From Legionella donaldsonii (GTDB taxonomy: Bacteria > Pseudomonadota > Gammaproteobacteria > Legionellales > Legionellaceae): DNA of 64,000 nucleotides. The notes beneath the pieces are model-generated. The model had not been told where the DNA came from. It searched no databases and worked only from the letters and a program-made list of their open reading frames with translations. The DNA lies in contig NZ_UGOA01000001.1 of the NCBI RefSeq assembly GCF_900452385.1, positions 1,249,501-1,313,500 on the forward strand. The letters run 5' to 3'. This document shows, one piece after another, positions 30,497 to 61,784 of this stretch; within the stretch, counting starts at the first letter, position 1; each line of letters starts with the position of its first letter. The position numbers and the translations under genes were made by a program.

Positions 30497-32707
30497 ATGG
30501 AAATTCTCGCCTTTTTTGCCGGGATAGCTTTTGCTTATACAAAGTCTATCTATCCCTTGTTATTAATTGTCGCTGCCTTATTTTTAAGAGCGCATTGGTC
30601 GCTTATTGTTTGGTTTTTAACGGCTATTCTGTGGGTGCTTTTTCATCAACTCTGGATTGCTGATCGGGGAATGCCTGAGCAGTTGGTTATTGCCAAAGCG
30701 GTACTGCAGGGCAGGGTAATCTCTGTTCCTGCCATTAGTCCGGGTAAAGCACAATTTCAATTTGCTGCAACCCGTTTGGATAATAAGCCAGTACAAGCTA
30801 CTCTGTTGTTATCCTGTTACCAACGCTGCCCCATTTTTAAACTTGGACAGGTTTGGCAATTGCAGGCCAAATTGAGAAAACCAGCCAATTTAGGTAATCC
30901 TGGCCACTTTGATTATGTCAGTTCGCTCGATGTACGCCATATCCACTGGACCGGTTATATTAAGCTTAAACCATTGCCACCCAAGCGTCTTGAACAAAGA
31001 GCGCACCCAGAGCGTTTACTTAATTTACGTCATCATTTAGCGGACTCAATGGCGCAGTTAATGCCTAAAGGTCATGCGTTGGGTATTTTACAAGCACTAA
31101 CGTTGGGAATAACGGTTAATGTGGATAAGCAGCAATGGGATTTATTTCGCCGTACCGGAACGACGCATTTAATGGTTATCTCCGGTTCCCACATTGGTTT
31201 GGTAGCCGGCTTAACCTATTGGTTGATAAAATGGTTGTGGTCGCGCGCCAGTCGCCTTTGCCTTTATTGGCCGGCGCTTCAGGTTGCTTCTGTGGTTGCT
31301 TTTTGTATGGCGCTTGCTTATGCCTTGTTGGCGGGTTTTTCTGCGTCGACACAGCGCGCGCTGGTTGCCTGTTTTTTTCTTTTTTTACGTCATTTCCTAA
31401 GCCAGCGTTTTACGGTCTGGCAAGCCTGGCGTTATGCCTTGCTTGCCGTTTTGCTATTTGAACCCCATGCCGTCTTAATGCCTGGATTTTATTTATCATT
31501 TATAGCGGTGGCAATCTTAATTCTCGTTACCCAGCGTTTTCCTTTTAAGGGAGTCAAACAAGGCCTGTGTTTGCAATTAGCTTGTCTGCTGGGTTTGATG
31601 CCGCTCACTTTATATTGGTTTTCCTATGGGGCAGTGAATGGATTGGCAGCCAATTTATTAGCGATTCCCTGGATAGAGTTTGTCATTGTGCCGCTTGCTT
31701 TAGTGACAATGCTAGTGACGCAATGGCTTGCTTTACCGGTCTTGGTGATGCCTGTTTATTGGGCAACAGAGGGATTGCTTTATTATTTACGATGGATTGA
31801 TTCCTTTGCCTGGCTCAATCTGGATTTTTCTTTTACCCAATTACTTTCGCCTTTGGCCTTGATGGCAGCAATGAGCCTGTTACTGTTATTACCCATTAGA
31901 ACCATTCTTCCAGCTGCACTTGTCCTGGGACTTGCGGGGCTTTTTCCTGCTTACCCACGTGTGAAGGAAGGCGATGCATGGATTGATGTTTTAGATGTAG
32001 GCCAGGGTTTGGCTGTTGTAGTGAATACTGCGAGGCATACACTTGTTTATGATACGGGTGTGAAATTTTACAAAGGGGGTGATATGGGAAAACTGGCGAT
32101 CATTCCCTATCTCAATACCTTGGGAGTCACCAAACTTGATAAAGTCATTATTAGCCACCCTGATTTGGATCATCGCGGTGGCTTGCCCTCTTTGCAGGCA
32201 AACTATCCCATCGGAGAACTGGTAGTGGACCAGGTCGCTTTTTATAAACAGGGGACTACTTGCCATCATTATCCAGCCTGGCAATGGGATGGGGTTTTCT
32301 TTCGTTTTTTTACAGTTGTGAAGGCTTTTAAAGACAAAAATAATACCTCCTGTGTTCTCCAGATAAGCAATAAGAAGGGAAAAGTTTTATTGACTGGCGA
32401 TATTGAAAAAGCAGGCGAAGAGGATCTGCGCGGCACTTACGGCAAACAATTGCGCTCGACTGTCTTAGTCGTGCCGCATCATGGCAGTAAAACCTCTTCC
32501 TCAGCTGCTTTTATACAACAGGTGTCACCACAATACGCAATCATTTCAGCCGGTTTTGATAATCGCTACCATTTTCCCCATCAACAAACGATTAATACGT
32601 TACAGAAAAATAAGGTGAAAATTTATAATACTGCCGATTGTGGTATGGTAACGATCAAGCTACATCAAGATACTAGCGGTATTAAGTTTTCCTGTTACAA
32701 GGGATGA
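30497..32707 (+). CDS. comEC: DNA uptake channel ComEC/Rec2
   Basis: About 736 residues. An N-terminal OB-like region, a polytopic competence domain with GTTHLMVISGSHIGLVAGL, and a C-terminal metallo-beta-lactamase-like domain (ISHPDLDHRGGLPSL, LLTGDIEKAGEEDL, VPHHGSKTSSS). It moves transforming DNA across the inner membrane. The frame opens with a TTG at 30473; the ATG at 30497 gives a conventional hydrophobic start (MEILAFFAGIAFAY). Confidence 0.93.
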   Translation: MEILAFFAGIAFAYTKSIYPLLLIVAALFLRAHWSLIVWFLTAILWVLFHQLWIADRGMPEQLVIAKAVLQGRVISVPAISPGKAQFQFAATRLDNKPVQATLLLSCYQRCPIFKLGQVWQLQAKLRKPANLGNPGHFDYVSSLDVRHIHWTGYIKLKPLPPKRLEQRAHPERLLNLRHHLADSMAQLMPKGHALGILQALTLGITVNVDKQQWDLFRRTGTTHLMVISGSHIGLVAGLTYWLIKWLWSRASRLCLYWPALQVASVVAFCMALAYALLAGFSASTQRALVACFFLFLRHFLSQRFTVWQAWRYALLAVLLFEPHAVLMPGFYLSFIAVAILILVTQRFPFKGVKQGLCLQLACLLGLMPLTLYWFSYGAVNGLAANLLAIPWIEFVIVPLALVTMLVTQWLALPVLVMPVYWATEGLLYYLRWIDSFAWLNLDFSFTQLLSPLALMAAMSLLLLLPIRTILPAALVLGLAGLFPAYPRVKEGDAWIDVLDVGQGLAVVVNTARHTLVYDTGVKFYKGGDMGKLAIIPYLNTLGVTKLDKVIISHPDLDHRGGLPSLQANYPIGELVVDQVAFYKQGTTCHHYPAWQWDGVFFRFFTVVKAFKDKNNTSCVLQISNKKGKVLLTGDIEKAGEEDLRGTYGKQLRSTVLVVPHHGSKTSSSAAFIQQVSPQYAIISAGFDNRYHFPHQQTINTLQKNKVKIYNTADCGMVTIKLHQDTSGIKFSCYKG

Positions 32708-43908: not shown

Positions 43909-46900
43909 TTAAAATTCTAATAAATCACCTCCAATAACTTCATTTAATAGGGAAGGTTCAATATTTTTCTCACTTAAACTCTTGTTGAGTTTGCTGGCTA
44001 AGGTTTGGATGTTAGGCTCGTAAAACATACTTTCGTGATCTCCTGGAACGATGTGGAGTTCGATGGGGCGTTTCGAATAATTTTCCCACCAATTTAAAGG
44101 GGCATCATATTGAAACATCTCGGTCAGCTTTTCGGCTTTAAACAAAATTAATTGGCTATTAATAATAGGCAATTTGTATTGCGTTAACATGTTTTCCCTA
44201 TGCCACTGTAGGTCTAGCAAAAATTGAGAATTATAGACATTATTTTCTACATACTTTTTTAATAGTCTCGAATTTTGTTCCTTCATGATGTCTTGGAAAT
44301 AAAGCTCATTACTTTGAAGTGTGGGATAAAATGCCCAGCCATCGAGAGAGATAATGGCTCTAACAGTTTCCCCTTTCTCCTCTAACTGTCTCGCCATTTC
44401 AATCGCGACAGTACTGCCAAATGATGAGCCGCCAAGTAAATAAGGACCATAAGGATAAATAGCCTGAAGTGAATCGATGTATGCGCTAGCCATCTCTTCC
44501 AGGGTATTAAAAATGAATTCGTTTTTATCAATGCCTGGGTCTTGTATCGCGTATAAGGGCCTTTCTTTGTCTAAATATTTGGCAAGAAGTTTATACCAAA
44601 ATACACTGCCGCCAATAGGGTGAACTAAAATAAGAGGTGTTTTATCACCGGTTTCTTTGAGGGCAATAAAATTTTCAGATGGATTATAGATAGTTAATCG
44701 ATCATCCGCTGTACGAGTCTCCATTTCAATTTCTTTCGCCAAAGAGTGTATCGTTGAGAACTCAAAAAAATTTCTAAGGCTTAAACACACTGAAAATTGC
44801 TCATGAATTAGCGAAATGATATTCATAGCGGAAAGTGAGTTACCTCCCAGCTCAAAAAAATCGTCATGAATTCCAAGATGGTCAATTTTTAACACAGAGC
44901 GCCAGATATTTTTTAATTGCAATTCAATATCATTATTTGGCTCTGCGTAATCATTGCTAGAAGTCAATTGTTTACAGGGTGTGGGTAAATTCTTTCTATC
45001 TACTTTTCCGCTTGGGGTTATTAAAAATTTGTCTACAACAAAGAATCGAGAAGGGATCATGTAGTCAGGAATCATTGCTTTGAGGGTGGAGCGAATATCT
45101 GTAGCAGATAGTTGAGCGTTTTGATCCAGTACAACGTAGGCTGATAACGATATTGAATTATCAGAGCCAGGTTCTGGTATGACAATGCATTGATGAATGG
45201 AGGGAATTTTTTCCAAATGGGATTCAATTTCATTCACTTCGATCCTAAATCCGCGGATTTTGACCTGACTATCACGTCGACCAATATATTCTATAATTCC
45301 GTCAGATTGCCATTTGACTAGATCACCGGTCTTGTACAACCTGTCATTCTTTTTGTTGCTGAACGGATTAGCTATGAATTTTTGCTCTGTAAATTCTTGA
45401 TTATTTAAATAACCACGCGCTAAACCCTCCCCAGCGATATAGAGCTCACCTGTCATTCCGATGGGCACAGGCTGCAGTTTGTCATCCAAAATATAGGCTT
45501 TTGTATTAGAGATGGGTTTACCGATTCGACTTGCATCGCTTTCTGCATCCGCTTGTGTACAAGTCAGTGTTATTGCGTCAATAGTCGTTTCAGTTGGGCC
45601 ATAAAGATTGTGTAGTTTTGCGCCAGAGGCGTTATTTTTAAAAAAAGCACCAATTGTTTCTGGCAAAAGCGCTTCACCTCCACAAAAGACCTGTTTAAGT
45701 GAATGACAGCTATCAAAACCTGGTGTAGACACTAATTCTTTCAACATGGAAGGGACAAGCTGTAAAACACTCACCTGATTGTCTTTGACTAAATTAGTCA
45801 TTTGGATGGGACTGGCATGAGCGTCTGCTGGTGCTATTACGAGTTTACCTCCTATGAAGAGAGGCATAAAAAATTCCCAAACGGAGGCGTCAAATGAAAA
45901 GGGAGTCTTCTGTAGAAAGACATCCGTATTGCTAAAGGAATATTCTTTTTGCATCCATACCATGTGATTACAAATAGCACGATGGGAAATCGCTACGCCT
46001 TTTGGTTTACCAGTTGTTCCTGATGTGTAAATAACATAAGCTAAATTTGAAAAATTACTGACATGTTGTAGATTTTCATCCGGTAAATTTTTTAAATCCA
46101 GTACGGAGTTTATGTCAATAATTTTGCCTGTGTATCGATGAGGTCTTTTCTTTATTGATTGCTGATCCACGATTAATAGGTTTGCTTTACTATCATTCAG
46201 CATATAGGAAATGCGTTCATCAGGATAATTGGGGTCTAAGGGAAGGTATGCCCCTCCTGATTTTAAGATTCCCAAAATACCAACAACCATTTCTATGCTG
46301 CGATCTAAACAAATCCCTATCAAATGATCCTTCCGCACGCCCTGGTTTCTCAAGTAGCAAGCTAATTGATTAGCTTTTTGATTGAGCTCGTTATAACTAA
46401 TTCCTGTACCTTGAAATACAGCAGCGATTGAATCGGGCGTTTTAGTAACTTGTTCTTCAAAGTACTGATGCAGCAGTTTTTTATAGTTATATTTAAACCC
46501 TGTATTATTCCAGGCATGCAGCACATTATTTCTTTCTTTTTTACCCATTATTGAAAGAAGGAAAATAGTTTTATCAGGACTATCAACTAAATCTTCCAGT
46601 AGTGTTAAAAAATGTCCATTCATATTTTCAAATAATGCATAAGATCCTGGCTGTGAGTTGTCATTGACATTGCTATGAAAATGGAACCAGTCGTGATTTG
46701 CTGAGATAAAAATAGTTAATTTTTTATTCGTCTTGCAGGGGGGGGGATTGTTTGCATCGATGAACCTGATACTGGCGTCAATTTGACTGGAAGACTTTTT
46801 TAATTGTGGGTAGCGAATAAAAATCTCTTTCGTGTAGGTGCTCTTTTGCAACAGCTTTGTTTTTTCGATTGAGACCAATGTTAATACATCCTTGAATGCC

Positions 46901-48234
46901 ATAGTACTATCAAACCTGGTTGACAACGGGAGATGGTCTGATAAAAAATTATGTAGGAATAAAGGTTTCGATTGTAATTCCAGGGGGCTCAATTCTACGG
47001 ATAAATTTCTATAATTGTTTAGCCGGTATAAATAAATTAAGGTAGCTGTTAACAAGATGTTCTCTAAAGAATGACCGTCACTGTCACTCGATAGTTTCTT
47101 TAGTTTCTTTAGCAAGGTATTGGGAATTCTGGTTTTCATCTCGCCAAATACGGCAACTGATTCCCCTCGTCTCGGTAGCTTAGACAAAAATGAAATCTCT
47201 TCCTGGGCACATTTTAAAAACTCATTAACCCAGAATTTTTCTACTTTAGGGTTTTGGGCAGGACTCGTTGATATTTTTTCGAGCAATCCAGCATCAATTG
47301 GGTCAAGCTTTGTAGGGATAGTGATATTCAATAAATGAACCAATGTTGGAATATCGTAATTTTCTCCATCAAGATCAGTAAGCTCTAAAATGGCAATATC
47401 GAAAGTTGCGGTAGCTACTTGAATATAACTATTTGAAAGCTTAACAATTGTTCCTGGCTCCATTCCTGAGAGTGCATTTAATTTTTTTAGCGCTTTTACG
47501 ACAAAAATCTTTCCATTCATTATAATTTTGGGAACGACTAATTGATTTAAATAGTTTCCCATGGAGAGAGCCCTACACAATCGATCGATATCATCAGCGG
47601 ATTTTTCCCAAGCGATAAACCCGAAATTAGCGGGCTTATCTTTTAGGCCGTAGTAGGAGCGGTATGATAAATTTTGTTTGACTGGTTTAGTGGTATTTGT
47701 AGCAAGCTCATCAACAAGTTCACGAAATGAGTGGATAGCCTTTTCGTAACATTTTAGATTTAAACTAAGTGCTGTATCAAAATCATCTATGGGAATGAGG
47801 GGTTGTTTCAGGATATTACCGGCATCAATCCTTTCATCCATAATGTGCCAACTAATCGCATGTTGTGTTTCGCCATTAAGAATCGCCCATGTCGTTGCAT
47901 ACAAACCAGCATATTTGGGTAATGGAGAATTGTGATAATTGATAGCGTAATAACGCGGAAGCGCCAGAATTTCTTTGGAAAGGATTTCACCATTGACTAT
48001 GCTAAAGAGGAAATCAAATTTCCCACCCATGTGTTTTTTTTCAAATTGCCTAACGCTCTCAATATAAGGAATGAAATTAGCAGTACACCATTTTTCGATT
48101 TTTTCTGACGGAGATATCAAGCCAAGCAACTCATGGCCGCTAGCCAAGATAATATTTGCACATTCTAATGTCATATTATCGTCACCAATAATGTAACAGC
48201 TAAAGGTTTTTTTTGCGCTCATACATAGGCTCAA
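43909..48234 (-). CDS. Single-module NRPS: formyltransferase, degenerate C, A, T, TE
   Basis: A 1,441-residue synthetase. Order: formyltransferase (~10-310, with INYHNSPLPKYAG and MDERIDAGNIL), a condensation-like remnant (~330-580) with no HHxxxDG, adenylation (~590-1090, core motifs YTSGTTGKPKG, NLYGPTETT, YKTGDLVKW, PSGKVDRK), carrier protein (FFELGGNSLSA) and thioesterase (GGSSFGSTVA, DGWAF, GDHESMF). Binding-pocket residues read by alignment to GrsA are D-A-W-Q-F-G-L-I-D-K, a code I recall for glutamine. The likely product is an N-formylated amino acid derivative. No phosphopantetheinyl transferase or exporter is adjacent. Confidence 0.92.
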   Translation of the reverse strand: MSLCMSAKKTFSCYIIGDDNMTLECANIILASGHELLGLISPSEKIEKWCTANFIPYIESVRQFEKKHMGGKFDFLFSIVNGEILSKEILALPRYYAINYHNSPLPKYAGLYATTWAILNGETQHAISWHIMDERIDAGNILKQPLIPIDDFDTALSLNLKCYEKAIHSFRELVDELATNTTKPVKQNLSYRSYYGLKDKPANFGFIAWEKSADDIDRLCRALSMGNYLNQLVVPKIIMNGKIFVVKALKKLNALSGMEPGTIVKLSNSYIQVATATFDIAILELTDLDGENYDIPTLVHLLNITIPTKLDPIDAGLLEKISTSPAQNPKVEKFWVNEFLKCAQEEISFLSKLPRRGESVAVFGEMKTRIPNTLLKKLKKLSSDSDGHSLENILLTATLIYLYRLNNYRNLSVELSPLELQSKPLFLHNFLSDHLPLSTRFDSTMAFKDVLTLVSIEKTKLLQKSTYTKEIFIRYPQLKKSSSQIDASIRFIDANNPPPCKTNKKLTIFISANHDWFHFHSNVNDNSQPGSYALFENMNGHFLTLLEDLVDSPDKTIFLLSIMGKKERNNVLHAWNNTGFKYNYKKLLHQYFEEQVTKTPDSIAAVFQGTGISYNELNQKANQLACYLRNQGVRKDHLIGICLDRSIEMVVGILGILKSGGAYLPLDPNYPDERISYMLNDSKANLLIVDQQSIKKRPHRYTGKIIDINSVLDLKNLPDENLQHVSNFSNLAYVIYTSGTTGKPKGVAISHRAICNHMVWMQKEYSFSNTDVFLQKTPFSFDASVWEFFMPLFIGGKLVIAPADAHASPIQMTNLVKDNQVSVLQLVPSMLKELVSTPGFDSCHSLKQVFCGGEALLPETIGAFFKNNASGAKLHNLYGPTETTIDAITLTCTQADAESDASRIGKPISNTKAYILDDKLQPVPIGMTGELYIAGEGLARGYLNNQEFTEQKFIANPFSNKKNDRLYKTGDLVKWQSDGIIEYIGRRDSQVKIRGFRIEVNEIESHLEKIPSIHQCIVIPEPGSDNSISLSAYVVLDQNAQLSATDIRSTLKAMIPDYMIPSRFFVVDKFLITPSGKVDRKNLPTPCKQLTSSNDYAEPNNDIELQLKNIWRSVLKIDHLGIHDDFFELGGNSLSAMNIISLIHEQFSVCLSLRNFFEFSTIHSLAKEIEMETRTADDRLTIYNPSENFIALKETGDKTPLILVHPIGGSVFWYKLLAKYLDKERPLYAIQDPGIDKNEFIFNTLEEMASAYIDSLQAIYPYGPYLLGGSSFGSTVAIEMARQLEEKGETVRAIISLDGWAFYPTLQSNELYFQDIMKEQNSRLLKKYVENNVYNSQFLLDLQWHRENMLTQYKLPIINSQLILFKAEKLTEMFQYDAPLNWWENYSKRPIELHIVPGDHESMFYEPNIQTLASKLNKSLSEKNIEPSLLNEVIGGDLLEF

Positions 48235-48523: not shown

Positions 48524-48824
48524 AAAATTTAAAAATCGTCGAGTCAAGACTGTTTTTTTATTATTTATTTGTTTATGATGCTCCACCGAAGACTTATTTT
48601 CTACGTCCTTAGCTATTGTGGATAATTCTTTACTCGCCTCGTCCATTTTTTATAATACAACATCTAATTCTCATCCGACCCCCTTATTTTAAAAGGGTTT
48701 TGCCATTTTTTCTTTCATTATTGATTTTTACGTTATCCACAAAAACTGTGGATAAAAATGTGTATAGAGTGGTAAATCTCAATGAACTAAAGCAGTTGAG
48801 TAGGTGCTCAACAACTTAACATGG
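48524..48824. other. DnaA-box element, copy A
   Basis: Perfect DnaA boxes (TTATCCACA or its complement) lie at 48617-48625, 48733-48741 and 48747-48755; a near match, TGTGTATAG, lies at 48759-48767. A T/A-rich run (GACTGTTTTTTTATTATTT) begins ~70 bp before the first box. The whole segment is a diverged repeat of 57256-57564 with the same box order and spacing. The short + frame at 48616-48819 overlaps the boxes and is not considered a gene. The rest of 48235-49015 shows no gene. Confidence 0.8.
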
Positions 48825-49015
48825 TTGATCATCCGCTAAGCCGCATAGATTTTACGTACAGTGGCTACTGATGCTTATTGCTCCTAATTTGCGCTTTAAA
48901 ATTAATGTGGGCTTGGTGGCTACTTCCATTCATAGTCGAGCTAATTCCTGTAGGAATGAATCAATAACCTAAAAAAATTACTGAATTCAGGTTAAAAGAC
49001 CGGCATACAAGCACT

Positions 49016-49170
49016 TTAGTTGCTTGGCTCATTAAACGCATAGTAGTTATTGACAGGAATGAAACCGTCTTCCGTACAAAATGCTTGGAAAACAACATCG
49101 CGCAGCGAAGGCATCATAGGGTTGTTAAAAAATGTAATAGCATGATAAATTGAATTTTTTAATAACAGGG
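49016..49170 (-). pseudogene. C-terminal fragment of an unidentified protein
   Basis: About 50 codons on the reverse strand end in TAA at 49016. They read like real protein: SIYHAITFFNNPMMPSLRDV, then AFCTEDGFIPVNNYYAFNEP. An in-frame stop lies at the upstream end and there is no start codon or ribosome site. The parent family is not recognised. It overlaps the chitinase promoter region. Confidence 0.45.
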
Positions 49171-49180
49171 AAGGTCAAGG

Positions 49181-51523
49181 ATGAGATATCTACACGTTGG
49201 ATTAGGTATTTTAACGGCGGCAACAGGGATGGCACATGCTTCTCTACAATCCACTAGGGCTCAACCCACAACCTGTATTACCTCTCATTTCAGTGCGACA
49301 GGCAGTCAATACTGGAAATCAATTGTTTTAAAGTTGACGAATAATTGCAGTCAGGCCGTCGATTTTCAAAATACAACGATATCGTTTCAGACAACCGAAG
49401 CGTTAAATACGTCATTTTGGGGTGATTTTTCACCGCTGTCTTACCCTGACAACGTATTAAATATTACTTCACAACAACAACCTGGCAATCAGTTTTTAGC
49501 AACCCTTAACCTGCATTTCCCGAGCTTCTCTGGTGCTAATAGCCTTTTACCCATCGGCAGCTCTATTTCAATTAAATATGGCGCAACGACCGATAGCCAT
49601 ATAGAGGGTACTACCAATGTTTACCTCAGCACCGTGGTAGAAACAGGCAGTATTCAAATAACTAATTCCTCAGCGAAGCCAACGAATGTTTCGCAAAATT
49701 ATGCAATGGTTCATTTGACAATGAATGGTCAATCGGTTGGCGATATCCAGTTACCCTGGCAAAGTTCAAAAACGTTATCCGGTCTTGCTGCCGGTAACTA
49801 TACGATTTCAGCCGATACAGTCACCGACAGCGCCGGCAACAATTATGTAGGCCAGGCCAATCCCAGCAGTGTTAATTTAGTTGCCAATGAGACAGTGAGC
49901 TCAATAATTAGTTACGCACAGCGACAGCAACTCGGGAAATTACGCATCAATTTACAAAATGTACCTAATGAGATAGCCGGTTACAGTGAAAATCCTTCTG
50001 TCTTAATTACCCAGGCCAACTCAGGTAACTCACAAACACAATCATTAAGCTGGGGCAGTGTGACAACCGTCTCTCAATTAGCTGAGGGCTCAACTTACCA
50101 ATTCTCGACATCGACCATTAATTACAATGGTTACAACTGTTTGCCAACCTTTACTCCTGCTTCTTTAGCGGCCAACGCGACCAACGTCCCAGTGACTAAT
50201 TTAACCTATCAATGTATTCAGGTAGCACAAGATTCTGTGCGATTAGAGGTGAATGGCGCACCGCCTTCTTTATCTGCGTTAAAAATTACTTTAACACCCA
50301 ATAACGGTTCACAGTCTGTCGAACAAACTATCGATTTAACGAATGGCAGTGGCTCAGCGTCTGTCTCTTTAACCGATGGCGTTATCTATACCGTTTCAAC
50401 TAATGCGGTATCTGGCTACACGGTACGATTTTCCCCTCAGCCTTTAACAGCCACTCCAGACGCCGTTGAAATAATTAGCTTAACTCAAGAGGTTGCTTCA
50501 GGGGGACGTATTATTGGTTATATCCCGGGCTGGAAAACCCCGCCTACCGCGCAAGCCTTAGCGAATGCGGGATATACCCATGTAATGATTGCCTTTGGAG
50601 TATTTAGTACAAGTACACCTGGAGTCATCACCCCGGCTTTCGATACGGTTACGAAAGACTATATCCAGTCGCTTCATGCCGCTGGCATTAAAGTGCTTCT
50701 TTCTTTAGGCGGTGCGTTAACAAGTCTTCCTAATACAAGTGTTGATTTTCATCAAGTATTAACTGCAGCTGCTTCAGCAGAAGACTTTAAACAAACCTTT
50801 ATTAATTCTTTAAATGGCTTAATCACGCAATACCATTTTGATGGTTTTGACATCGATATTGAGCACGGCATTAATGGTGGTGGGACTTTTTCTCAACCAC
50901 AAGGGGATATTGCCGTACTCGCTAGCATTATCAATACGATGCACAATCAAAATCCTTCTCTCCTGATTACCTTAACGCCGCAGGTTGCTAATATTGCAGC
51001 GACAAGGGGGTTTGATCAGACCTGGGGTAATTATGCCTCGTTAGTGATGCAGACTCATACCTCTCTGGCCTGGGTTGGGATTCAGCTCTACAATACAGGC
51101 TGTGCATTTGGTATTGACCTGGTATGTTACGGTCCCATTCCTACGAATACCCCTGATTTCTCCGTCGCGATGGCTACTGATTTACTGGCAAATTGGCCTG
51201 CTAGTGTGAATGGGCAAACTACAGGCTTTCAGCCTTACATTAGCCATTTACAACCGTCACAAGTTGTCATTGGTTATCCGTCTGCTAACGCAAATGGACA
51301 AAGTGACGGCTCGCCTATAACGCCAACCGCCACGATTAAGCGCGCAATTCAATGCCTTAAAACAGCGGTTGCTGGTAATACAAGCTGCGGCAGTTATATT
51401 CCACCTCAAGCCTATGGCAATATTGGCGGTGTCTTTAATTGGGAAGTCACTTATGACCAAAGTAATAGTTTCAAATTTGCGACGGAACTAAAAAACTGTG
51501 TCATTAATGGGATTTGCAATTAA
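49181..51523 (+). CDS. chiA: Secreted family-18 chitinase, ChiA-like
   Basis: A 780-residue protein. Signal peptide (LHVGLGILTAATGMAHA), then ~430 residues of beta-rich N-terminal domains (carbohydrate-binding or Ig-like), then a GH18 domain with the catalytic FDGFDIDIEHG, the substrate strand VKVLLSLGGA-like region and a conserved C-terminal GGVFNWEVTYD. It hydrolyses chitin. In L. pneumophila, ChiA is exported by type II secretion. GGAAGG precedes the ATG. The gene is flanked by a remnant upstream and a hairpin downstream. Confidence 0.92.
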   Translation: MRYLHVGLGILTAATGMAHASLQSTRAQPTTCITSHFSATGSQYWKSIVLKLTNNCSQAVDFQNTTISFQTTEALNTSFWGDFSPLSYPDNVLNITSQQQPGNQFLATLNLHFPSFSGANSLLPIGSSISIKYGATTDSHIEGTTNVYLSTVVETGSIQITNSSAKPTNVSQNYAMVHLTMNGQSVGDIQLPWQSSKTLSGLAAGNYTISADTVTDSAGNNYVGQANPSSVNLVANETVSSIISYAQRQQLGKLRINLQNVPNEIAGYSENPSVLITQANSGNSQTQSLSWGSVTTVSQLAEGSTYQFSTSTINYNGYNCLPTFTPASLAANATNVPVTNLTYQCIQVAQDSVRLEVNGAPPSLSALKITLTPNNGSQSVEQTIDLTNGSGSASVSLTDGVIYTVSTNAVSGYTVRFSPQPLTATPDAVEIISLTQEVASGGRIIGYIPGWKTPPTAQALANAGYTHVMIAFGVFSTSTPGVITPAFDTVTKDYIQSLHAAGIKVLLSLGGALTSLPNTSVDFHQVLTAAASAEDFKQTFINSLNGLITQYHFDGFDIDIEHGINGGGTFSQPQGDIAVLASIINTMHNQNPSLLITLTPQVANIAATRGFDQTWGNYASLVMQTHTSLAWVGIQLYNTGCAFGIDLVCYGPIPTNTPDFSVAMATDLLANWPASVNGQTTGFQPYISHLQPSQVVIGYPSANANGQSDGSPITPTATIKRAIQCLKTAVAGNTSCGSYIPPQAYGNIGGVFNWEVTYDQSNSFKFATELKNCVINGICN

Positions 51524-51571
51524 TCGCCAGGTTGCACACCGTTTGAAAGAGGGCTGTGTAAACGAAGTCCG

Positions 51572-51608
51572 GGCTTGAATTTTGTATTCAACAATCAAAA
51601 TTCAAGCC
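51572..51608 (+). terminator. 13-bp hairpin after the chitinase
   Basis: GGCTTGAATTTTG pairs perfectly with CAAAATTCAAGCC around an 11-nt loop, 49 bp after the chitinase stop. No T-run follows. From here to 51877 no gene is seen. Confidence 0.6.
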
Positions 51609-51877
51609 TTGCTCCATAGGTACTCCCTAGTAAGAAAATTCAGAGAATAGCATTCAGAGTAATGACAGGAATAGAAACGCAGTTGTTAATTGAAACGCTT
51701 TGTAGAGGAGCTAATTTGCTCCTTTAGTGTCTGCTGAATTCTAAAAATTCATTGCAAGACACTAAAGAATCAAATAGTATAAAAAGCGCGTTTGAAGTAT
51801 TAAATGCAACAAGCGCTGACAGAGAGGAATTCGAGCGCCTCCCCGCCAGCTGACCAAATTTATCACAGGAGATAAAG

Positions 51878-51970
51878 ATGGCTAAAGGAATCTTAGTCTA
51901 TTTCAGTTTTGTATTTCAATGGCATGTCCGTAAGAAGCCACCAAAATTTCCCATTATTTACACCGGTTGA
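51878..51970 (+). CDS. Possible 30-residue small protein
   Basis: ATG with ideal AGGAG spacing starts MAKGILVYFSFVFQWHV and ends in TGA after 30 codons. The first half is hydrophobic and aromatic, the second basic (RKKPPKFP). It could be a small membrane peptide or a leader for the regulator gene 142 bp downstream. Only the strong ribosome site supports it. Confidence 0.4.
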   Translation: MAKGILVYFSFVFQWHVRKKPPKFPIIYTG

Positions 51971-52112
51971 ACATTAAGGGCATGGTTTACAGCGTGCTTT
52001 TAATTCGCTTTTAGCCAGAAATCTTAATTATTTCAGCGACTAGAGACACAGGAATTATTTTTTCCATTAATTCCTGTGCTAAGTCACACCTTTAAAAAAT
52101 AAAGGAAGAATA

Positions 52113-52511
52113 ATGGTGAAAACAAAGCAAGAAAGCTTGAGGAAAACGAATTTAATCGACAGTCCCTTTTTTAAAGTGTTTGCAAAGAATTACCTGGACT
52201 ACTTAGGGAATAGCAGTCCTACCAACAAACAGCTAGCTGAAATCCAGGCCTTACTTTCCAATACCTGGATACGACTTCCGATTTGTTTCGACCTACGTTT
52301 AAGTGAGCAGGAAAAACAGTGCCTGTATCTATCCGCACAAGGTAAAGAGGTGAAAGAAATAGCTGCGTTTTTAAAGGTATCCACCCGAAGAGTGACTCAG
52401 CATCGGCAATCCATCTTTCAAAAATTGAATTGTAAAAATATAACCAGTGCAATTATTGTCGGGCTGCGGTTTGGGGTAATCAAAGCTGAACATCTATTAG
52501 ACGAAAAGTAG
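52113..52511 (+). CDS. LuxR-type helix-turn-helix regulator
   Basis: A 132-residue protein whose C-terminal half is a LuxR/GerE DNA-binding domain: LSEQEKQCLYLSAQGKEVKE, then FLKVSTRRVTQHRQSIFQKL. The N-terminal ~60 residues are too short for a receiver or autoinducer domain. AAGGAAG is upstream of the ATG. Targets unknown. It resembles the short LuxR proteins common in Legionella. Confidence 0.85.
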   Translation: MVKTKQESLRKTNLIDSPFFKVFAKNYLDYLGNSSPTNKQLAEIQALLSNTWIRLPICFDLRLSEQEKQCLYLSAQGKEVKEIAAFLKVSTRRVTQHRQSIFQKLNCKNITSAIIVGLRFGVIKAEHLLDEK

Positions 52512-52623
52512 ATTGCTTGGGTAGATGGCAAATTCCAGATGGGGGAGATGTAAGATGTGAATCTTGATATAAATTTTGTTGTACAACTATTTAAAATAAA
52601 TAGGACATTTGGCGTATTGGGAC

Positions 52624-52736
52624 AATAAAACGATGCTTTATTAAGCATAATGCTGCTATATTCTGATTAATAAAAAGTAAGATTATTAATCATGAAATGG
52701 AATTGGCAGCTTGAGAATTGGCCTAATTATACTTGA
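52624..52736 (+). pseudogene. Relic of a Fic gene with its operator
   Basis: This stretch matches 39830-39942, the promoter and first codons of the second Fic gene, with about ten differences by eye. The start ATG at 52692 reads MKWNWQLENWPNYT then a stop. The inverted repeat next to the ATG (GATTAATAA 52665, TTATTAATC 52683) is kept exactly; the upstream one has decayed. The remaining gap to 52958 contains no gene I can support. Confidence 0.85.
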
Positions 52737-52958
52737 ATTAAAAATAATTGCTGTTTCGGATCCAGTACACGCAAGGTTATCTCATCGACCCTATCGCCTC
52801 CAGTAGGGATCAATGTAGCACTGGACGAAATTCAAACGTTTAAAGGCCTGTTATTTGATTCTGATGAGTAAATGCTGGTCAAAAATGATTTCTCGAAAAA
52901 CCGATCTTTAAGGTGAAATTGAAGTTGGATATTCTCTTGGATGAGGAGCACTGGATTT

Positions 52959-54248
52959 ATGTCCGATAAAATTGATGAAAAGGAGTTACCATTTAAATCG
53001 GTTCTTGATCAGACTGATGATGTCGTTATCATCACTGCAGTTGAACCTCTCAATGAGCCATTTGGGCCAAAAATCCTTTATGTCAACAAAGCGTTTACAA
53101 CGCTTACCGGCTATACCCAGGAGGAAGTTCTAGGTAAAACACCCCGTATTTTACAAGGAGATAAAACGGATAAAAACACGCTAAAACGAATTAGGATCGC
53201 TTTGGAAAAAAAAGAAGCTATCCATGTTGAATTATTAAACTATGCCAAAGATCAAACAGAGTATTGGCTCGATTTTACTATTATCCCTATTAAAGATAGT
53301 AAGAAGAGGATTCAGTATTTTGCTGCGATTGAACATGATATTACTGAGCGAAAAAAACTGGAAGATGCAAAGGCTATGCTTTCTGCTCTTGTTGAGTTTT
53401 CAGGGGAAGCAATCATAGGAAAAAACCTGGAAGGGATCATACAAAGCTGGAATGAAGCAGCCAGGAATCTTTACGGTTACACTGAAAAGGAAGCCATAGG
53501 GGCTAATATAAAAATGCTATTTCCTAAGGAGAGGAAGAGAGAGTTTCAATATATCATGGATAAAATGGTTAAGGATCAACCCATTAAAGGCTTTGAAACA
53601 GTCAGAATGCATAAAGAGGGTCATATTATTCCAGTTTCTCTTACGATAGCGCCAATAAAAAATGCTCGGGGAAAGATAATAGGAGCATCAACAACAGCTC
53701 GCGATATTACCCAACAAAAAATAAACGAAGAAAAATTAAAACACCTCGCAGAACATGATGTTTTGACAGGATTGATTAATCGCCCACTCTTTGAAGATCG
53801 CCTGGTTCAAGCACTGGCTATTGCAAAAAGAACAAATTGTAATATGGCCGTTTGTTTTTTAGATATCGATGGTTTTAAAAACATTAATGATACTTACGGT
53901 CACGATATAGGCGATTTGGTATTGTGCACGGCAGCTCAATGCATGCAAAAATGTATACGGGACATTGATACGCTAGCACGGTTTGGTGGAGACGAATTTG
54001 CATTAATATTGTCCTACCTTAATGAAGAAAAGGATGTTATTAAAATAGTGAAGAAGTTAATTCGTTTATTCTCAAAAGGATTTTTGATTGAAAATTATAA
54101 CCTCAAAGTTACTTTGAGTATTGGTATTTCATTGTACCCCAGAGATGGCATGAATGATCTTCTTAAGAAAGCGGATGCTGCGATGTATTACGTGAAAAAA
54201 CACGGCAAGAATAATTTTATTTTTTTCAATGCAATTGATAAGAACTAA
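52959..54248 (+). CDS. Cytoplasmic PAS-PAS-GGDEF diguanylate cyclase
   Basis: About 429 residues with two PAS domains (each closed by a PAC-type segment, EHDITERKK and TTARDITQQK) and a GGDEF domain with the intact active site RFGGDEFALIL and an NDTYGHDIGD motif. It should synthesise c-di-GMP. AGGAG 10 bp before ATG 52959 favours this start over the in-frame ATG at 52941. First of three closely spaced genes in the same direction, though the 308-bp gap downstream argues against one operon. Confidence 0.88.
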   Translation: MSDKIDEKELPFKSVLDQTDDVVIITAVEPLNEPFGPKILYVNKAFTTLTGYTQEEVLGKTPRILQGDKTDKNTLKRIRIALEKKEAIHVELLNYAKDQTEYWLDFTIIPIKDSKKRIQYFAAIEHDITERKKLEDAKAMLSALVEFSGEAIIGKNLEGIIQSWNEAARNLYGYTEKEAIGANIKMLFPKERKREFQYIMDKMVKDQPIKGFETVRMHKEGHIIPVSLTIAPIKNARGKIIGASTTARDITQQKINEEKLKHLAEHDVLTGLINRPLFEDRLVQALAIAKRTNCNMAVCFLDIDGFKNINDTYGHDIGDLVLCTAAQCMQKCIRDIDTLARFGGDEFALILSYLNEEKDVIKIVKKLIRLFSKGFLIENYNLKVTLSIGISLYPRDGMNDLLKKADAAMYYVKKHGKNNFIFFNAIDKN

Positions 54249-54380
54249 TTTAGGTTGGTATTATTTGTCCTGAAATTAGGGATAAACAGTCTGGTGGCAC
54301 TCGCAGGGCACGAGATAACAAGAAATCATGATTGATGACAGCCGATGGTAATGATTAATTTAACCTAATTTATTGATTAT

Positions 54381-54398
54381 ATTGCTATTAATAGCAAT
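54381..54398. promoter_or_regulatory. 18-bp perfect palindrome
   Basis: ATTGCTATTAATAGCAAT lies within the 308-bp gap upstream of the GNAT gene. It could be an operator. Nothing else stands out in the gap. Confidence 0.35.
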
Positions 54399-54556
54399 TC
54401 CTGCGATTAGTTTCATTCTCCAAATTCAAACGGTTTCCTTGGCGTAGATAGCCAATTAGCCTTAGTTTTGGATAGCAGGCAATACGTAGCATGTTCTATG
54501 AATATAAAAATAAATGGATTACAGTAAGCTTCAATTTTTAAAGAGGAGCGTCTCCG

Positions 54557-55027
54557 ATGAGTATTACCATCTCCTATCTTAAAAATCATCCTCAAGTAAT
54601 TCCTGCTCTAGCAAGGATTTGGCATTCTGTTTTAGGACGTGTTTGGGTGCCAGACATTCCCATCGAACGTGTCGAGCAGCGTTTTCGTGAGCATTTGAAC
54701 GATGTGGTGTTGCCAATGACCTTTGTTGCTTTTGATGGAAATAAACTCGTAGGTAGTGTTTCTTTACGTGAAAATGATGGAATTCAGCCGCATTTGACGC
54801 CCTGGCTTGGTTCTCTTGTGGTCGATACAGCCTATCAAAAATGTGGTATTGGAAAAATGCTAATTGATGTCACCAAGCAAAAGGCCATTGAATTAGATTT
54901 TAAGACATTGTACCTGTTTACTTTCGATCCAACACTTCCTGCTTATTATGTGCGACAGGGATTTAATAAAATTGGTATGGATGAATTTAGAGGGCATCCT
55001 GTCACCGTGATGGAAACATCGCTGTGA
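54557..55027 (+). CDS. GNAT-family acetyltransferase
   Basis: A 156-residue acetyltransferase with LGSLVVDTAYQKCGIGKMLI (acetyl-CoA loop KCGIGK) and AYYVRQGFNKIG. GAGGAG precedes the ATG. Substrate unknown. It lies between two GGDEF genes. Confidence 0.87.
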   Translation: MSITISYLKNHPQVIPALARIWHSVLGRVWVPDIPIERVEQRFREHLNDVVLPMTFVAFDGNKLVGSVSLRENDGIQPHLTPWLGSLVVDTAYQKCGIGKMLIDVTKQKAIELDFKTLYLFTFDPTLPAYYVRQGFNKIGMDEFRGHPVTVMETSL

Positions 55028-55230
55028 GCCGTTATTGGCTACAGTCAATTGCTTTCTTTTGAAGCAGGGACTCCTATCCCGGAAATCCGCAGCAAACTCT
55101 TTTGCACATCGCCGAATTCTTCTTACAGGAGTATGGAGTTCTTTGAGCTGAATGATTAAATCTTATGCTATCATTTACTATGTCTTATTGATTATATCTC
55201 TTAAGGCCAAGGAATCGGTAATGAGCGGAC

Positions 55231-57204
55231 ATGAAAAACAAAGACATTCAACATTTCAAAGAAGACGCTAAAGCCATTTTGGAGGCAGTTCCAGATTTGT
55301 ACCTTATTTTATGCCCCCGATTTAATATTGTTGGTGCAAGCGATGCGTATCTTAAAGCAACGATGCTGAAGCGAGAGGACATACTGGGACACTCTGTCTT
55401 CGATATTTTTCCAGACAATCCTGATGATACGTCAGCAACCGGCGTCAGTAATTTGCGTTACTCGTTAAATCGGGTATTAGAAGGCAAAGTTTCTGATGCG
55501 ATGGCTATACAAAAATATGCTATTCGACGCCCTTCTGCTTTAGGCGGGGGTTTTGAGGAGAGGCACTGGAGTGCCATTAATTGCCCCATTCTGGATCAAG
55601 CTAACCGCGTCAAATACATTATTCATCGAGTCGTGGATGTAACAACCTTTATTCATCAGCAATCTCATGACGACCAATCAAAAATTATGGAAATCTTGCA
55701 AGGTCATGAAGGGCAGGTTGGTTGGGAAATCATGGAGAGAGCTAATAATCTTCAAGAGGTTAATAAGACGTTGCAAGAAAGAGAGGGGTATAATTCGGCT
55801 TTTTTGTCTGCTATTCCTGATGCAATGATTTTAGTGAATCGTGACGGAAAAATTGAATTTAGTAATACTCAGGCAGAAGTCATGTTTGGCTACACCAAAA
55901 AGGAATTATTAGGACAAGCAGTCGAGTTATTAATGCCTGAAAATGCGGCTAAAATACATCCTCAGCATCGTGAGGATTATTTTAATGCGCCGCGCGTACG
56001 TCCCATGGGGCTTGGCATGGAGCTTCAAGGAAAGCGAAAAAATGGGGACATATTTATCATTGAAATTAGTTTAAGTCCGTTGCAAACCCCTCAAGGAGGT
56101 AGTGCAATTGCTATTATCCGCGATGTAACGCTGCGAGTTGAACAAAACAAATTATTACAACAAAAAGAAAAGTCTCTCAGAGAATTGTATGAAACGGTTG
56201 AGAAAGAGAAATCGCAACTTAAATCGATTAATCAAAAGATGTTTATTATTACACAATTAAGTGAAACTTTTCTTGCTTGCAACACAATTGATGAAATACT
56301 GGAGTCCTTCTCATCGTTTGCTAATAAAATTCTGGGTTTCTCTAAGGGCGCTCTATATCTAATGCATAATTCACGCAACTACCTGGAAAAAAAAATTACA
56401 TGGGATGATGTAAATCATTATCCAGTGATTTTTTCTTCCAATGAATGTTGGGCTTTAAGACGAGGTTGTATTCATGAGGTCAGTGAAGTGCAGCCCGGGG
56501 TTGTATGTCGGCACATCAAAGAGATGAAACAAGAACAGCAGGCATCCTTGTGCATCCCCTTAATGGCTCAAAATGAAATACTAGGCCTGTTATTGATTAA
56601 TAGGGATTCTGACGAACAGAATACGTTAATTCCAGTGGTTGCAGAAACAGTCTCACTAGCGATTGCAAATATCAGATTGAAAGAATTACTTCATTCCCAG
56701 TCTATTCGTGATCCACTTACCGGCTTATTAAATCGTCGCTTTCTTGACGAATTTATGATCAAGCAAATAGGGCAAGCAAAACGTACCAAGACATCCTTGG
56801 TATTTATTATGGTTGATATTGATAATTTTAAAGCAATCAATGATAGTTTTGGCCATGAAATAGGAGACTATGTGTTATCTCGCCTGGGTAATTTACTTCC
56901 GTCTTTGGTTCGAGAAGGTGATTTGGCCTGTCGCTACGGAGGGGAAGAGTTTTTAATTGTTATACCGAACTGTGATGCTAAGAATGCAAAGCTCTTTGCT
57001 GAAAAAATACGAAATAAAGTGAGCAGAATGCGGATTGTAATTGAAGAACGGGTCTCTAATATTGCTATATCACTTGGCGTTGCAATCTATCCAGGGGATG
57101 GTTCGTCATTGAAAGAGTTAGTCGATGCAGCCGACCAGGCATTATATGCAGCTAAAAGACAAGGTAAAAATAAGACAATTATATTCACTGAAATTAATAA
57201 ATAA
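55231..57204 (+). CDS. PAS-GAF-GGDEF diguanylate cyclase
   Basis: A 657-residue soluble protein. An N-terminal PAS-like domain (~10-150), a second PAS (~185-305) with PAC ending, a short coiled linker, a GAF domain (~335-490, containing CWALRRG and CRHIKEM) and a GGDEF domain with RYGGEEFLIVIP. The GAF domain shares its Cys/His pattern with the GGDEF protein at 18177-20318. No membrane spans. Active-site residues are intact. Confidence 0.9.
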   Translation: MKNKDIQHFKEDAKAILEAVPDLYLILCPRFNIVGASDAYLKATMLKREDILGHSVFDIFPDNPDDTSATGVSNLRYSLNRVLEGKVSDAMAIQKYAIRRPSALGGGFEERHWSAINCPILDQANRVKYIIHRVVDVTTFIHQQSHDDQSKIMEILQGHEGQVGWEIMERANNLQEVNKTLQEREGYNSAFLSAIPDAMILVNRDGKIEFSNTQAEVMFGYTKKELLGQAVELLMPENAAKIHPQHREDYFNAPRVRPMGLGMELQGKRKNGDIFIIEISLSPLQTPQGGSAIAIIRDVTLRVEQNKLLQQKEKSLRELYETVEKEKSQLKSINQKMFIITQLSETFLACNTIDEILESFSSFANKILGFSKGALYLMHNSRNYLEKKITWDDVNHYPVIFSSNECWALRRGCIHEVSEVQPGVVCRHIKEMKQEQQASLCIPLMAQNEILGLLLINRDSDEQNTLIPVVAETVSLAIANIRLKELLHSQSIRDPLTGLLNRRFLDEFMIKQIGQAKRTKTSLVFIMVDIDNFKAINDSFGHEIGDYVLSRLGNLLPSLVREGDLACRYGGEEFLIVIPNCDAKNAKLFAEKIRNKVSRMRIVIEERVSNIAISLGVAIYPGDGSSLKELVDAADQALYAAKRQGKNKTIIFTEINK

Positions 57205-57255
57205 TAATTCAGATTGGTTATTTTGACAGAGTCTGCAAGGTAAGCAGTTAACAAC

Positions 57256-57564
57256 TTAAATTTAAAAATTCTAGAGTCAAGACTGTTTTTTTAATATTTA
57301 TTTGTTTATCATCACCCACGCATAGTTCTTTTTTTATTTTCTTATAAAGTCTGTGGATAATTCTTTGGTCTTCCCGTCTATTTTTTAGAAAAAAATACCG
57401 TTTAATAATTCAAAAGCCTTATTTTAAAAGGGTTTAATAAAACGCTTTAGGGATTGTTGTTTTTTTATCTTATCCACAATATCTGTGGATAAGCGTGTGT
57501 ATAGAATGCTAAATCCTAATGAACTAATACAGTTATCCATGTGCTCAATTACTTAACACGGTTC
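57256..57564. other. DnaA-box element, copy B
   Basis: Perfect DnaA boxes at 57352-57360, 57470-57478 and 57484-57492, and the near match TGTGTATAG at 57496-57504. Distances between box starts are 118, 14 and 12 bp, versus 116, 14 and 12 in copy A. The same T/A-rich run precedes the first box. A further near match (TTATCCATG) follows at 57533. It lies between convergent genes. Confidence 0.8.
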
Positions 57565-60608: not shown

Positions 60609-61784
60609 TTACCCATATTCAATGTGTTTGCCTTTGGTAATTTCATAAATAACTGACTTCACTTTGAAACGCCGGTCAGCGCTTAAACTGTTTGCCAGGG
60701 TCATATAAAGTGAACCATCCATTGAAAACACATGGGAACTAACGCCACCAAAAGTGGGTATTGTTTGAATGATGGCAAATTGTCCCTCTTTCCATTGATA
60801 TAAAGGAGATTGCAAGGCGGGGTTTGGATTAGTGTGATTACCGGTAATAAAATTAATCCGGAAAAGGTAGTGCTCATCCCTTAAAGTGAAATAACTAAAA
60901 TGGCGTCCTCCTTCGCCTTGTAAAAGTTGATAGGGATTAAATTTTTTTCCATCCCACTGATAGAGTACCGAATCTGTTTTAATATTGGCGTACGCGAGAT
61001 AAAATTTATTATCCAGCATAAAAAATTCAAAGCCTCGCCCGCCATCACCTTTAAACTGTTGATACAGATTAAATTGAGCCCCATCCCACAAATAAAGGGA
61101 CGATTGCTTCAAGTGATCGGCAAAGGCTAAAAATAATTTGTTATTAATAGAGAAGGCTTTAAACGAATAACCCTGACGTGATGGAATGGTTTGAAAAGGA
61201 ACAAATTTTTTACCATCCCACTCGTAAATCATGGAATTAGTTTCTTGAGGATGGCCTTTGTTTTCGGAAGTACCCCCTCCATTTGCAACCGCTAAAAAGT
61301 GCCGTTGGCCAATATTGAAAGAGTACCATTGCTGTGCACCGTAAGTTAAAAATTCTTGTACGGGATAAAAATAACGCCCATCCCATTGATAGAGCATGGA
61401 ATAAGTATGCAAATTAAAAGGAGGATGAGGACCTGAGTGTGCACTGGCAATCGCTAAAAAAGAATTTTTGCCAATCGAAAAAAAAGTAGCTGATTCATTA
61501 CCATGTCCGGGGATGCGTTGGTATTCACGGAATTGACTACCTGCTTTCTTGAAAATGATCACATCAACATCGGCGTTACCTCCGTCCATCTTGGCAGGGG
61601 TGTCAGGGATGTCTTCAGCGAACTGGGCTACTGCAATGTAGTACTCATCCTCCAGAGTAAATGGTGTTAATTGGCGAGCGCCAGTTGTTTCCAGGTATTG
61701 GATAGGAATCAATAGTTGTTCTGCAAAAACCGAAGTGGAAAAACCAATCAGTAAATAGGTGATTAACCATTTGATTATTCTCAT
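60609..61784 (-). CDS. Secreted EAR/EPTP-repeat beta-propeller protein
   Basis: A 391-residue protein with a signal peptide (WLITYLLIGFSTSVFA) and seven repeats of ~45-50 residues. Each has an F-x-L/I-A-x-A strand followed by Y-x-W-D/E-G-x2-F/Y-x-P/L-Y/F-Q, as in YQWDGKKFNPYQLLQGEGG. This is the epitempin-associated repeat, which builds a seven-bladed propeller in animal LGI and VLGR proteins. A role in binding outside the cell is likely. Confidence 0.85.
   Translation of the reverse strand: MRIIKWLITYLLIGFSTSVFAEQLLIPIQYLETTGARQLTPFTLEDEYYIAVAQFAEDIPDTPAKMDGGNADVDVIIFKKAGSQFREYQRIPGHGNESATFFSIGKNSFLAIASAHSGPHPPFNLHTYSMLYQWDGRYFYPVQEFLTYGAQQWYSFNIGQRHFLAVANGGGTSENKGHPQETNSMIYEWDGKKFVPFQTIPSRQGYSFKAFSINNKLFLAFADHLKQSSLYLWDGAQFNLYQQFKGDGGRGFEFFMLDNKFYLAYANIKTDSVLYQWDGKKFNPYQLLQGEGGRHFSYFTLRDEHYLFRINFITGNHTNPNPALQSPLYQWKEGQFAIIQTIPTFGGVSSHVFSMDGSLYMTLANSLSADRRFKVKSVIYEITKGKHIEYG

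What the first reader, a model, noticed from the sequence alone, without database searches (positions are those of the whole stretch)
48524..57564. Twin non-coding elements with conserved DnaA-box geometry
Copies at 48524-48824 and 57256-57564 share a T/A-rich run, three perfect TTATCCACA boxes and one near match in the same order and orientation, at 116/118, 14 and 12 bp. The sequence between the boxes has diverged, so the boxes look selected. The layout resembles an origin (unwinding region plus boxes) or a DARS/datA-type DnaA-control site. No dnaA or other origin gene is near, and a duplicated site within 9 kb is unexpected.
Basis: partly seen in the sequence, partly recalled or inferred. 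Interest (0 to 1): 0.88.

Follow-up and report, generated by a model that had tools for sequence, protein, structure and literature searches.

The report
Multicopy DnaA-reactivating (DARS-type) sites in Legionella
The two matching stretches look like recharging stations for DnaA, the protein that starts DNA replication: they have the layout of E. coli's two known sites of this kind, but Legionella relatives carry several per genome with an added upstream part of their own.

Summary
Both copies share a T-rich motif, a distal DnaA box, a head-to-head box pair and a weaker third box. The last three are laid out 9-5-9-3-9, box I opposed to II and III, as read in E. coli DARS1 and DARS2 (defining feature in PMC5742627, passages). 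It is neither an origin nor just a pair: the genome holds nine chromosomal and two plasmid-sized-contig copies of the head-to-head pair. The core, at up to one mismatch, is in 136 of 140 family genomes (median 5 matches) and 168 of 271 other Gammaproteobacteria sampled (median 1). In 22 genus genomes 76 of 77 head-to-head pairs have exactly 5 bp between boxes. A copy beside recG occurs in 9 of 9 genus genomes sampled and as 3-5 tandem copies in five other Legionella genomes. A family-specific module, GTCAAGACTGTTTTTT near -190 and box IV near -118, precedes 35 of 49 cores. Best reading: multicopy DARS sites that reload ADP-DnaA with ATP, under a control arm unlike that of DARS1 or DARS2. Layout is shown; nucleotide exchange and the motif's partner are inferred. 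New variant of a known kind.

The parts
48542..48575 (+). Copy 1: T-motif AGTCAAGACTGTTTTTTT plus T-rich tail, 190 bp before box I
   Evidence: GTCAAGACTGTTTTTT identical in 34 of 35 modules
48617..48625 (-). Copy 1: DnaA box IV (distal), 116 bp before box I
48733..48741 (+). Copy 1: DnaA box I of the DARS-type core
48747..48755 (-). Copy 1: DnaA box II, head-to-head with box I, 5-bp spacer
48759..48767 (-). Copy 1: DnaA box III (TGTGTATAG), 3 bp after box II, same orientation
57275..57308 (+). Copy 2: T-motif plus T-rich tail, 194 bp before box I
57352..57360 (-). Copy 2: DnaA box IV (distal), 118 bp before box I
57470..57478 (+). Copy 2: DnaA box I
57484..57492 (-). Copy 2: DnaA box II
57496..57504 (-). 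Copy 2: DnaA box III (TGTGTATAG)

Best explanation
The two elements are members of a multicopy family of DARS-type (DnaA-reactivating) sites. SHOWN: a core of three DnaA boxes with E. coli DARS1/DARS2 orientation and spacing, plus a family-specific upstream module (T-motif near -190, box IV near -118). INFERRED from E. coli work: ADP-DnaA binds boxes I and II head to head; contact between the AAA+ domains makes it drop ADP; box III stabilises the complex; the released DnaA picks up ATP and can fire oriC. INFERRED without direct support: the T-motif is bound by a DNA-bending or other architectural protein that, with DnaA on box IV about eleven helical turns from the core, controls when the core is active, as IHF, Fis and box V do at DARS2. 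Several copies per chromosome would make ATP-DnaA supply depend on the number and position of sites.
For: Exact geometry match with DARS1 (TTATCCACT-ATTCC-TGTGGATAA-CCA-TGTGTATTA) and DARS2 (TTATCCCAG-CTTTC-TGTGGATAA-CAT-GGTGTAAGA) read from E. coli MG1655. PMC5742627: spacing of boxes I-III is the same in both DARSs and box I is opposed to II and III (passage). With spacers of 0-25 bp allowed, 77 exact head-to-head pairs in 22 genomes, of which 76 have N5; backwards-read control 0. Of 56 T-motifs found by their own pattern, at least 47 are followed 160-200 bp on by the exact pair (counted by hand). Box III within my thresholds at +3 in 49 of 51 palindromes examined. In 35 modules, mean major-allele frequency is 0.96 for box IV and 0.87 for box III against 0.52-0.56 for the sequence between and around. 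Core in 136 of 140 family genomes. recG-side site in 9 of 9 genus genomes sampled. Hda, the RIDA protein that makes ADP-DnaA, is present (271 bits, over cut-off). DnaA keeps R227, R285, L290 and D269 and is 76/94 identical to E. coli over domain IV. E. coli DnaA prefers box pairs 2-3 bp apart, the box II-III spacing (PMC11317965, passages).
Against: No binding or nucleotide-exchange data exist here. IHF and Fis sites could not be told apart from the conserved boxes: IHF at 1 mismatch, 19 matches against 23.0 in shuffles; at 2 mismatches and for Fis at 1 mismatch there are position clusters above the shuffle maximum (21 and 20 against 9; 13 against 8), but they coincide with box IV and the T-tail. 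Copy numbers of 3-14 would, by analogy with plasmid-borne DARS2 in E. coli (overinitiation, PMC4245941, passage), be expected to over-stimulate initiation unless each copy is weak or regulated. The copies are not held at one chromosome position. The strong distal box of DARS2 points the other way from box IV. DnaA H136 and E21 differ from E. coli (F and Q). Invariance of boxes I and II in the fetched relatives is partly by selection, since those loci were chosen for an exact pair.
Confidence: 0.75

Rival explanations
1. DnaA sinks: the sites titrate DnaA or promote its ATP hydrolysis (datA-like), delaying rather than promoting initiation.
For: Many consensus boxes in several copies per genome; titration by chromosomal boxes is argued for E. 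coli (PMC12371093, search listing and start of abstract only).
Against: Titration needs boxes, not a fixed head-to-head 5-bp layout held in 76 of 77 pairs. The order equals DARS. No separable IHF site between boxes.
Confidence: 0.12
2. A selfish or drifting dispersed repeat that happens to carry DnaA boxes (MITE-like), with no cell function.
For: Paralogues at unrelated loci; lineage-specific copies (among the exact-pair sites of nine genus genomes, the twin copies have a counterpart by neighbour genes only in G006); tandem arrays beside recG.
Against: T-motif, box III and box IV stay while spacers have decayed. In the closest relative the module's spacers are better conserved (172/182 and 161/185) than sequence just outside it (476/653 and 121/163). 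No terminal inverted repeats seen. A recG-side site is kept in two genera. No match in the plasmid or phage collections. May still describe how copies spread.
Confidence: 0.07
3. DnaA-controlled promoter or operator sites for the neighbouring genes.
For: DnaA is also a transcription regulator in E. coli (PMC11317965, passages).
Against: Of 35 modules, gene arrangement could be classed for 33: 12 convergent, 4 divergent, 17 co-directional; copy 2 is convergent. Promoter-like hits do not exceed shuffles (3 against 3.5, 2 against 2.2). Neighbour genes differ from copy to copy.
Confidence: 0.03
4. Auxiliary or relict replication origins (AT-rich unwinding run plus boxes).
For: T/A-rich run beside DnaA boxes; the two copies on the small contigs lie beside parB and a putative rep gene.
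Against: Head-to-head layout and nine chromosomal copies; the T-rich run ends about 40 bp from box IV and about 160 bp from the core; no helicase or initiator gene among the four ORFs next to the window copies; oriC-like boxes lie at dnaA.
Confidence: 0.02
5. An RNA hairpin (terminator or small RNA) encoded by the 9-5-9 inverted repeat.
For: Perfect inverted repeat.
Against: No T-run after the hairpin in either copy; the one terminator-like hit, 48795-48812, is elsewhere. No Rfam match there. Box III and box IV are conserved though they do not pair in the hairpin. The lack of covariation in the arms is weak evidence, since sites were mostly chosen for exact arms.
Confidence: 0.01

Closest known systems
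E. coli DARS1 (bioD-uvrB interval)
   Same: Boxes I, II, III: identical orientation and 5-bp and 3-bp spacings; box II sequence identical; box III TGTGTATTA against TGTGTATAG. Intergenic. Fractional ori-ter position 0.66; this genome's nine sites 0.32-0.97, seven of them 0.48-0.78 (terminus assumed opposite dnaA).
   Different: DARS1 is 101 bp with a regulatory region of about 50 bp (PMC5742627, passage). It has no T-motif in the 260 bp upstream (sequence printed) and no box within one mismatch near -118. One copy.
E. coli DARS2 (rppH-mutH interval)
   Same: Same core geometry; a further exact DnaA box, which I take to be box V, 105 bp from the core; regulatory arm of comparable length. GTCAAGGCTGT, one base off the first 11 bases of the T-motif, lies 42 bp before the DARS2 core (may be chance).
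   Different: That distal box has the opposite orientation to box IV. The required IHF and Fis sites (PMC4245941, passages) could not be identified here. DARS2 is single copy; here sites are multicopy and at other genes.
E. coli datA
   Same: DnaA-box cluster in non-coding DNA.
   Different: No DARS-type head-to-head core is described for datA in the passages read; datA needs an IHF site (PMC4585315, passage), not identified here.
oriC
   Same: DnaA boxes near a T-rich run.
   Different: Head-to-tail boxes in oriC (PMC10380432, passage); this genome's dnaA-side interval lacks the 9-5-9-3-9 layout.

Membership tests
DARS (DnaA-reactivating sequence) core | Boxes I and II head to head | tested here: met
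   Both window copies and the 11 sites of the genome; hallmark per PMC10380432 and PMC5742627 (passages)
DARS (DnaA-reactivating sequence) core | Box III in the orientation of box II; I-II and II-III spacings equal to DARS1 and DARS2 (5 bp, 3 bp) | tested here: met
   Compared with MG1655 sequence; 49 of 51 palindromes have box III at +3 within my thresholds, 44 of 49 with TGTG exact; N5 in 76 of 77 pairs
DARS (DnaA-reactivating sequence) core | Conserved across related genomes | tested here: met
   136 of 140 family genomes, 168 of 271 others of the class at up to 1 mismatch
DARS (DnaA-reactivating sequence) core | Non-coding location | tested here: met
   47 of 49 cores overlap no ORF of 100 aa or more; exceptions L056 and L094
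DARS (DnaA-reactivating sequence) core | Preferential ADP-DnaA binding and ADP release | not testable with these tools
   Needs biochemistry
DARS (DnaA-reactivating sequence) core | Host has an ADP-DnaA cycle (Hda) and DnaA with the residues used at DARS | tested here: met
   Hda 271 bits, over cut-off; R227, R285, L290, D269 conserved
DARS2 specifically | IHF and Fis sites in the regulatory arm | tested here: inconclusive
   Consensus scans on 35 modules: clusters coincide with box IV and the T-tail and cannot be separated from them
DARS2 specifically | Position beside mutH | tested here: not met
   Neighbours of the window copies: NRPS-type and GH18 genes; GGDEF and beta-lactamase-family genes
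oriC | Head-to-tail box array with unwinding region, single site | tested here: not met
   Head-to-head core, nine chromosomal copies, dnaA elsewhere
datA | IHF site beside DnaA boxes | tested here: inconclusive
MITE or other mobile repeat | Terminal inverted repeats | tested here: not met
   Inverted repeats of 9 or more found in the two copies are the DnaA boxes plus short AT-rich matches

The most novel reading that the evidence does not exclude
Legionellaceae run a multicopy DnaA-recharging system. Several DARS cores per chromosome, some in tandem arrays beside recG, are each wired to a family-specific control arm: a GTCAAGACTGTTTTTT site read by an unidentified protein, plus a DnaA box held about eleven helical turns from the core. 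Number and position of sites would set how fast ATP-DnaA builds up, an evolvable copy-number dial on replication initiation.
Probability: 0.4. Interest if true: 0.75.

Novelty: new variant of a known kind. Interest (0 to 1): 0.62.

Why it matters
E. coli is described with at least two DARS sites, and extra DARS2 on a plasmid drives overinitiation (PMC4245941, passages). A family whose genomes hold a median of five core matches, with tandem arrays, raises a direct question: how is initiation kept in check, and what does copy number buy? The conserved spacing offers a sequence test of the head-to-head model of DnaA reactivation across a whole class. The near-invariant T-motif points to an unknown partner of DnaA. 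In the held library, searches for Legionella with DARS or DnaA-reactivating sequence found 0 papers; wider searches returned listings only, none of whose titles or abstract starts concern this. The two papers that I looked for and that are not held (recalled as the 2009 DARS paper and a 2019 paper on DARS mechanism) could not be checked. A review states that DARS-like sequences are conserved in many proteobacteria (PMC10380432, passage), so conservation as such is known.

Tried and rejected
Origin, RNA hairpin, promoter and MITE readings were tested and set aside. IHF and Fis sites were sought by consensus and could not be separated from the boxes and T-tail. An E. coli-type dif pattern gave 0 of 14 genomes, so ori-ter fractions assume the terminus lies opposite dnaA. 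The plasmid and phage collections gave no DNA match to copy 2. Clustering of chromosomal sites: 7 of 9 lie within 528 kb, simulated P 0.002; not tested in the other genomes, whose sites look spread by eye, so I give it no weight.

Limits of the counts. Matches are counted on both strands, so a symmetric site can count twice (seen in G025 and G115). Match lists were cut ('more matches are not listed'); tallies were not. The genomes are also. Rows left out: one search kept 49 of the 51 palindromes fetched (L068 and the C2 site in L054 failed the box III threshold); searches used the 35 of those 49 with the T-motif; neighbour arrangement was classed for 33 of 35. In the nine genus genomes sampled only exact pairs were fetched for the relatives, so copies with one mismatch were not seen there.
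Full report
CHECK. Both copies are present as described: T-rich run, three perfect TTATCCACA boxes, one near match, at 116/118, 14 and 12 bp. Boxes with up to one mismatch are not enriched in the window as a whole (23 against 18.2 expected), so the signal is the arrangement. Between copies, boxes agree at 36 of 36 positions, the T-motif at 27 of 28, spacers at 113 of 187.

A FAMILY. A DNA search of the genome (3.61 Mb, 3 contigs) found nine matching stretches, on both strands. The head-to-head pair with a 5-bp spacer occurs at nine chromosomal places (eight exact, one with one mismatch) and once, with one mismatch, on each of the contigs C2 (103,635 bp) and C3 (82,224 bp); the backwards control gave none. 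In all 11 a TGTG follows at exactly 3 bp in one of the two orientations. Six of the nine chromosomal copies carry the T-motif and a distal box; of the other three, one has a distal box with one mismatch and two have none.

WHAT IT IS. E. coli MG1655 sequence shows the same 9-5-9-3-9 layout at DARS1 and at DARS2. PMC5742627 (passages) states that the spacing of boxes I-III is the same in DARS1 and DARS2 and that box I is opposed to II and III. PMC10380432 (passages) calls the head-to-head pair characteristic and functionally essential, with box III stimulating. The E. coli geometry was not used to find the window elements, so it is an independent match.

IS THE GEOMETRY SELECTED? With any spacer of 0-25 bp allowed, 22 genus genomes gave 77 exact head-to-head pairs; 76 have N5 and one, in G005, has 9 bp. 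Of 51 palindromes examined (11 of this genome, 40 of eight relatives) 49 have box III at +3 within my thresholds. Of 56 T-motifs found by their own pattern in 22 genomes, at least 47 are followed by the exact pair 160-200 bp on (by hand; one G021 pair is unlisted). In 35 full modules GTCAAGACTGTTTTTT is identical in 34, and box IV is present within one mismatch in 35 (exact in 21) at -107 to -119, with the T-motif at -179 to -194. Mean major-allele frequency is 0.96 for box IV and 0.87 for box III against 0.52-0.56 for sequence between and around. Boxes I and II are 1.00 there, but most loci were chosen for an exact pair, so that figure is partly by selection.

DISTRIBUTION. With up to one mismatch the core is in 136 of 140 family genomes; the order sample, 55 of 58, holds only this family; outside the family it is in 168 of 271 class genomes. 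Matches per genome: median 5, mean 5.1, 75 of 140 with five or more in the family; median 1, mean 1.0, 1 of 271 with five or more outside. The family misses are G039, G052, G056 and G062; G039 and G062 are 0.5-Mb genomes. The T-motif plus distal box, searched exactly over the public genome contigs, gave 85 stretches: 84 titled Legionella, Legionellaceae, Tatlockia or Fluoribacter, and one titled Gammaproteobacteria bacterium, L137.

POSITION AND HISTORY. A site beside recG (NCBIfam RecG, 1047 bits in this genome; BLAST relatives elsewhere) is found in 9 of 9 genus genomes sampled. In five other Legionella genomes the recG side carries tandem arrays with spacings of 391-418 bp: 5 copies in L. 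sp. 515359, 4 in G117, 3 each in L. parisiensis, L. anisa and G104. A second site beside lolC is shared between this genome and G117. Outside the family, 3 of 12 sites fetched lie beside priA, 2 beside rimO and 1 beside lon; the other six were not named. In eight genomes the fractional ori-ter position of the listed sites runs from 0.09 to 0.97; recG-side sites lie at 0.38-0.60 in the six genomes where both were known, against 0.66 and 0.41 for DARS1 and DARS2 (terminus assumed opposite dnaA).

THE HOST HAS THE CYCLE. Hda is present. DnaA is identical to E. coli at 314 positions of E. coli's 467, 190/239 in the AAA+ domain and 76/94 in the box-binding domain (domain limits recalled); R227, R285, L290 and D269 are conserved, H136 and E21 are not. 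PMC5742627 ties L290 to ADP release at DARS2 and D269 to that at DARS1 (passages).

MECHANISM. Shown: the DNA layout, its conservation, its multiplicity. Inferred from E. coli work: ADP-DnaA on boxes I and II interacts head to head, loses ADP, leaves as apo-DnaA and reloads ATP; box III raises occupancy. Inferred without direct support: the T-motif binds an architectural protein, and box IV, near 118 bp from the core, takes part through a loop. At DARS2 this role is played by IHF, Fis and box V (PMC4245941, PMC8682772, PMC10380432, passages). Matching consensus sites could not be separated from box IV and the T-tail here, and the strong distal box of DARS2 has the other orientation, so I do not file these as DARS2. 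A Fis-like cluster over box IV (13 of 35 in the best window, shuffle maximum 8) would parallel the Fis site over DARS2 box V, but it may only reflect the box sequence.

WEAK POINTS. No function was measured. The class-wide pattern is strict enough to miss DARS2 itself, so copy numbers outside the family are lower bounds, and the family contrast may partly reflect consensus-like boxes in AT-rich genomes. The copies on C2, beside parB, and on C3, beside a gene that I take by eye for a replication gene (no NCBIfam match), could serve plasmid replication instead. The rpmH-dnaA identity of the origin interval was recognised by eye, not by a call.

VERDICT. A real, constrained, multicopy DARS-type element with a family-specific regulatory arm: new variant of a known kind.

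Noticed in passing
L182, L185, L114, L116, L162: Tandem arrays of 3-5 cores (spacing 391-418 bp), nearly all with the full module, directly beside recG in other Legionella genomes.
   Followed up: partly
L189, L195, L196 (outside the family): The same core layout lies directly beside priA in 3 of 12 sites fetched from other Gammaproteobacteria, and beside rimO in 2 (L191, L198): possible class-wide DARS positions.
   Followed up: partly
L054 (C2:16292) and L055 (C3:37589): Both small contigs carry a core with one mismatch right after parB or a putative replication gene, so Legionella plasmids may carry DARS-like cores at their replication or partition loci.
   Followed up: partly
L048, 42 bp before the DARS2 core: E. 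coli DARS2 contains GTCAAGGCTGT, one base off the first 11 bases of the T-motif, but at another distance from the core.
   Followed up: partly
window 43909-48234 and 49181-51523: An NRPS-type protein (adenylation domain) and a GH18/EndoS-like glycosidase flank copy 1.
   Followed up: no
window 60609-61784: Protein with six EPTP repeats (PF03736), a domain that I recall from animal proteins.
   Followed up: no
window 31120-31128: One isolated exact DnaA box on the - strand with no exact partner beside it.
   Followed up: no
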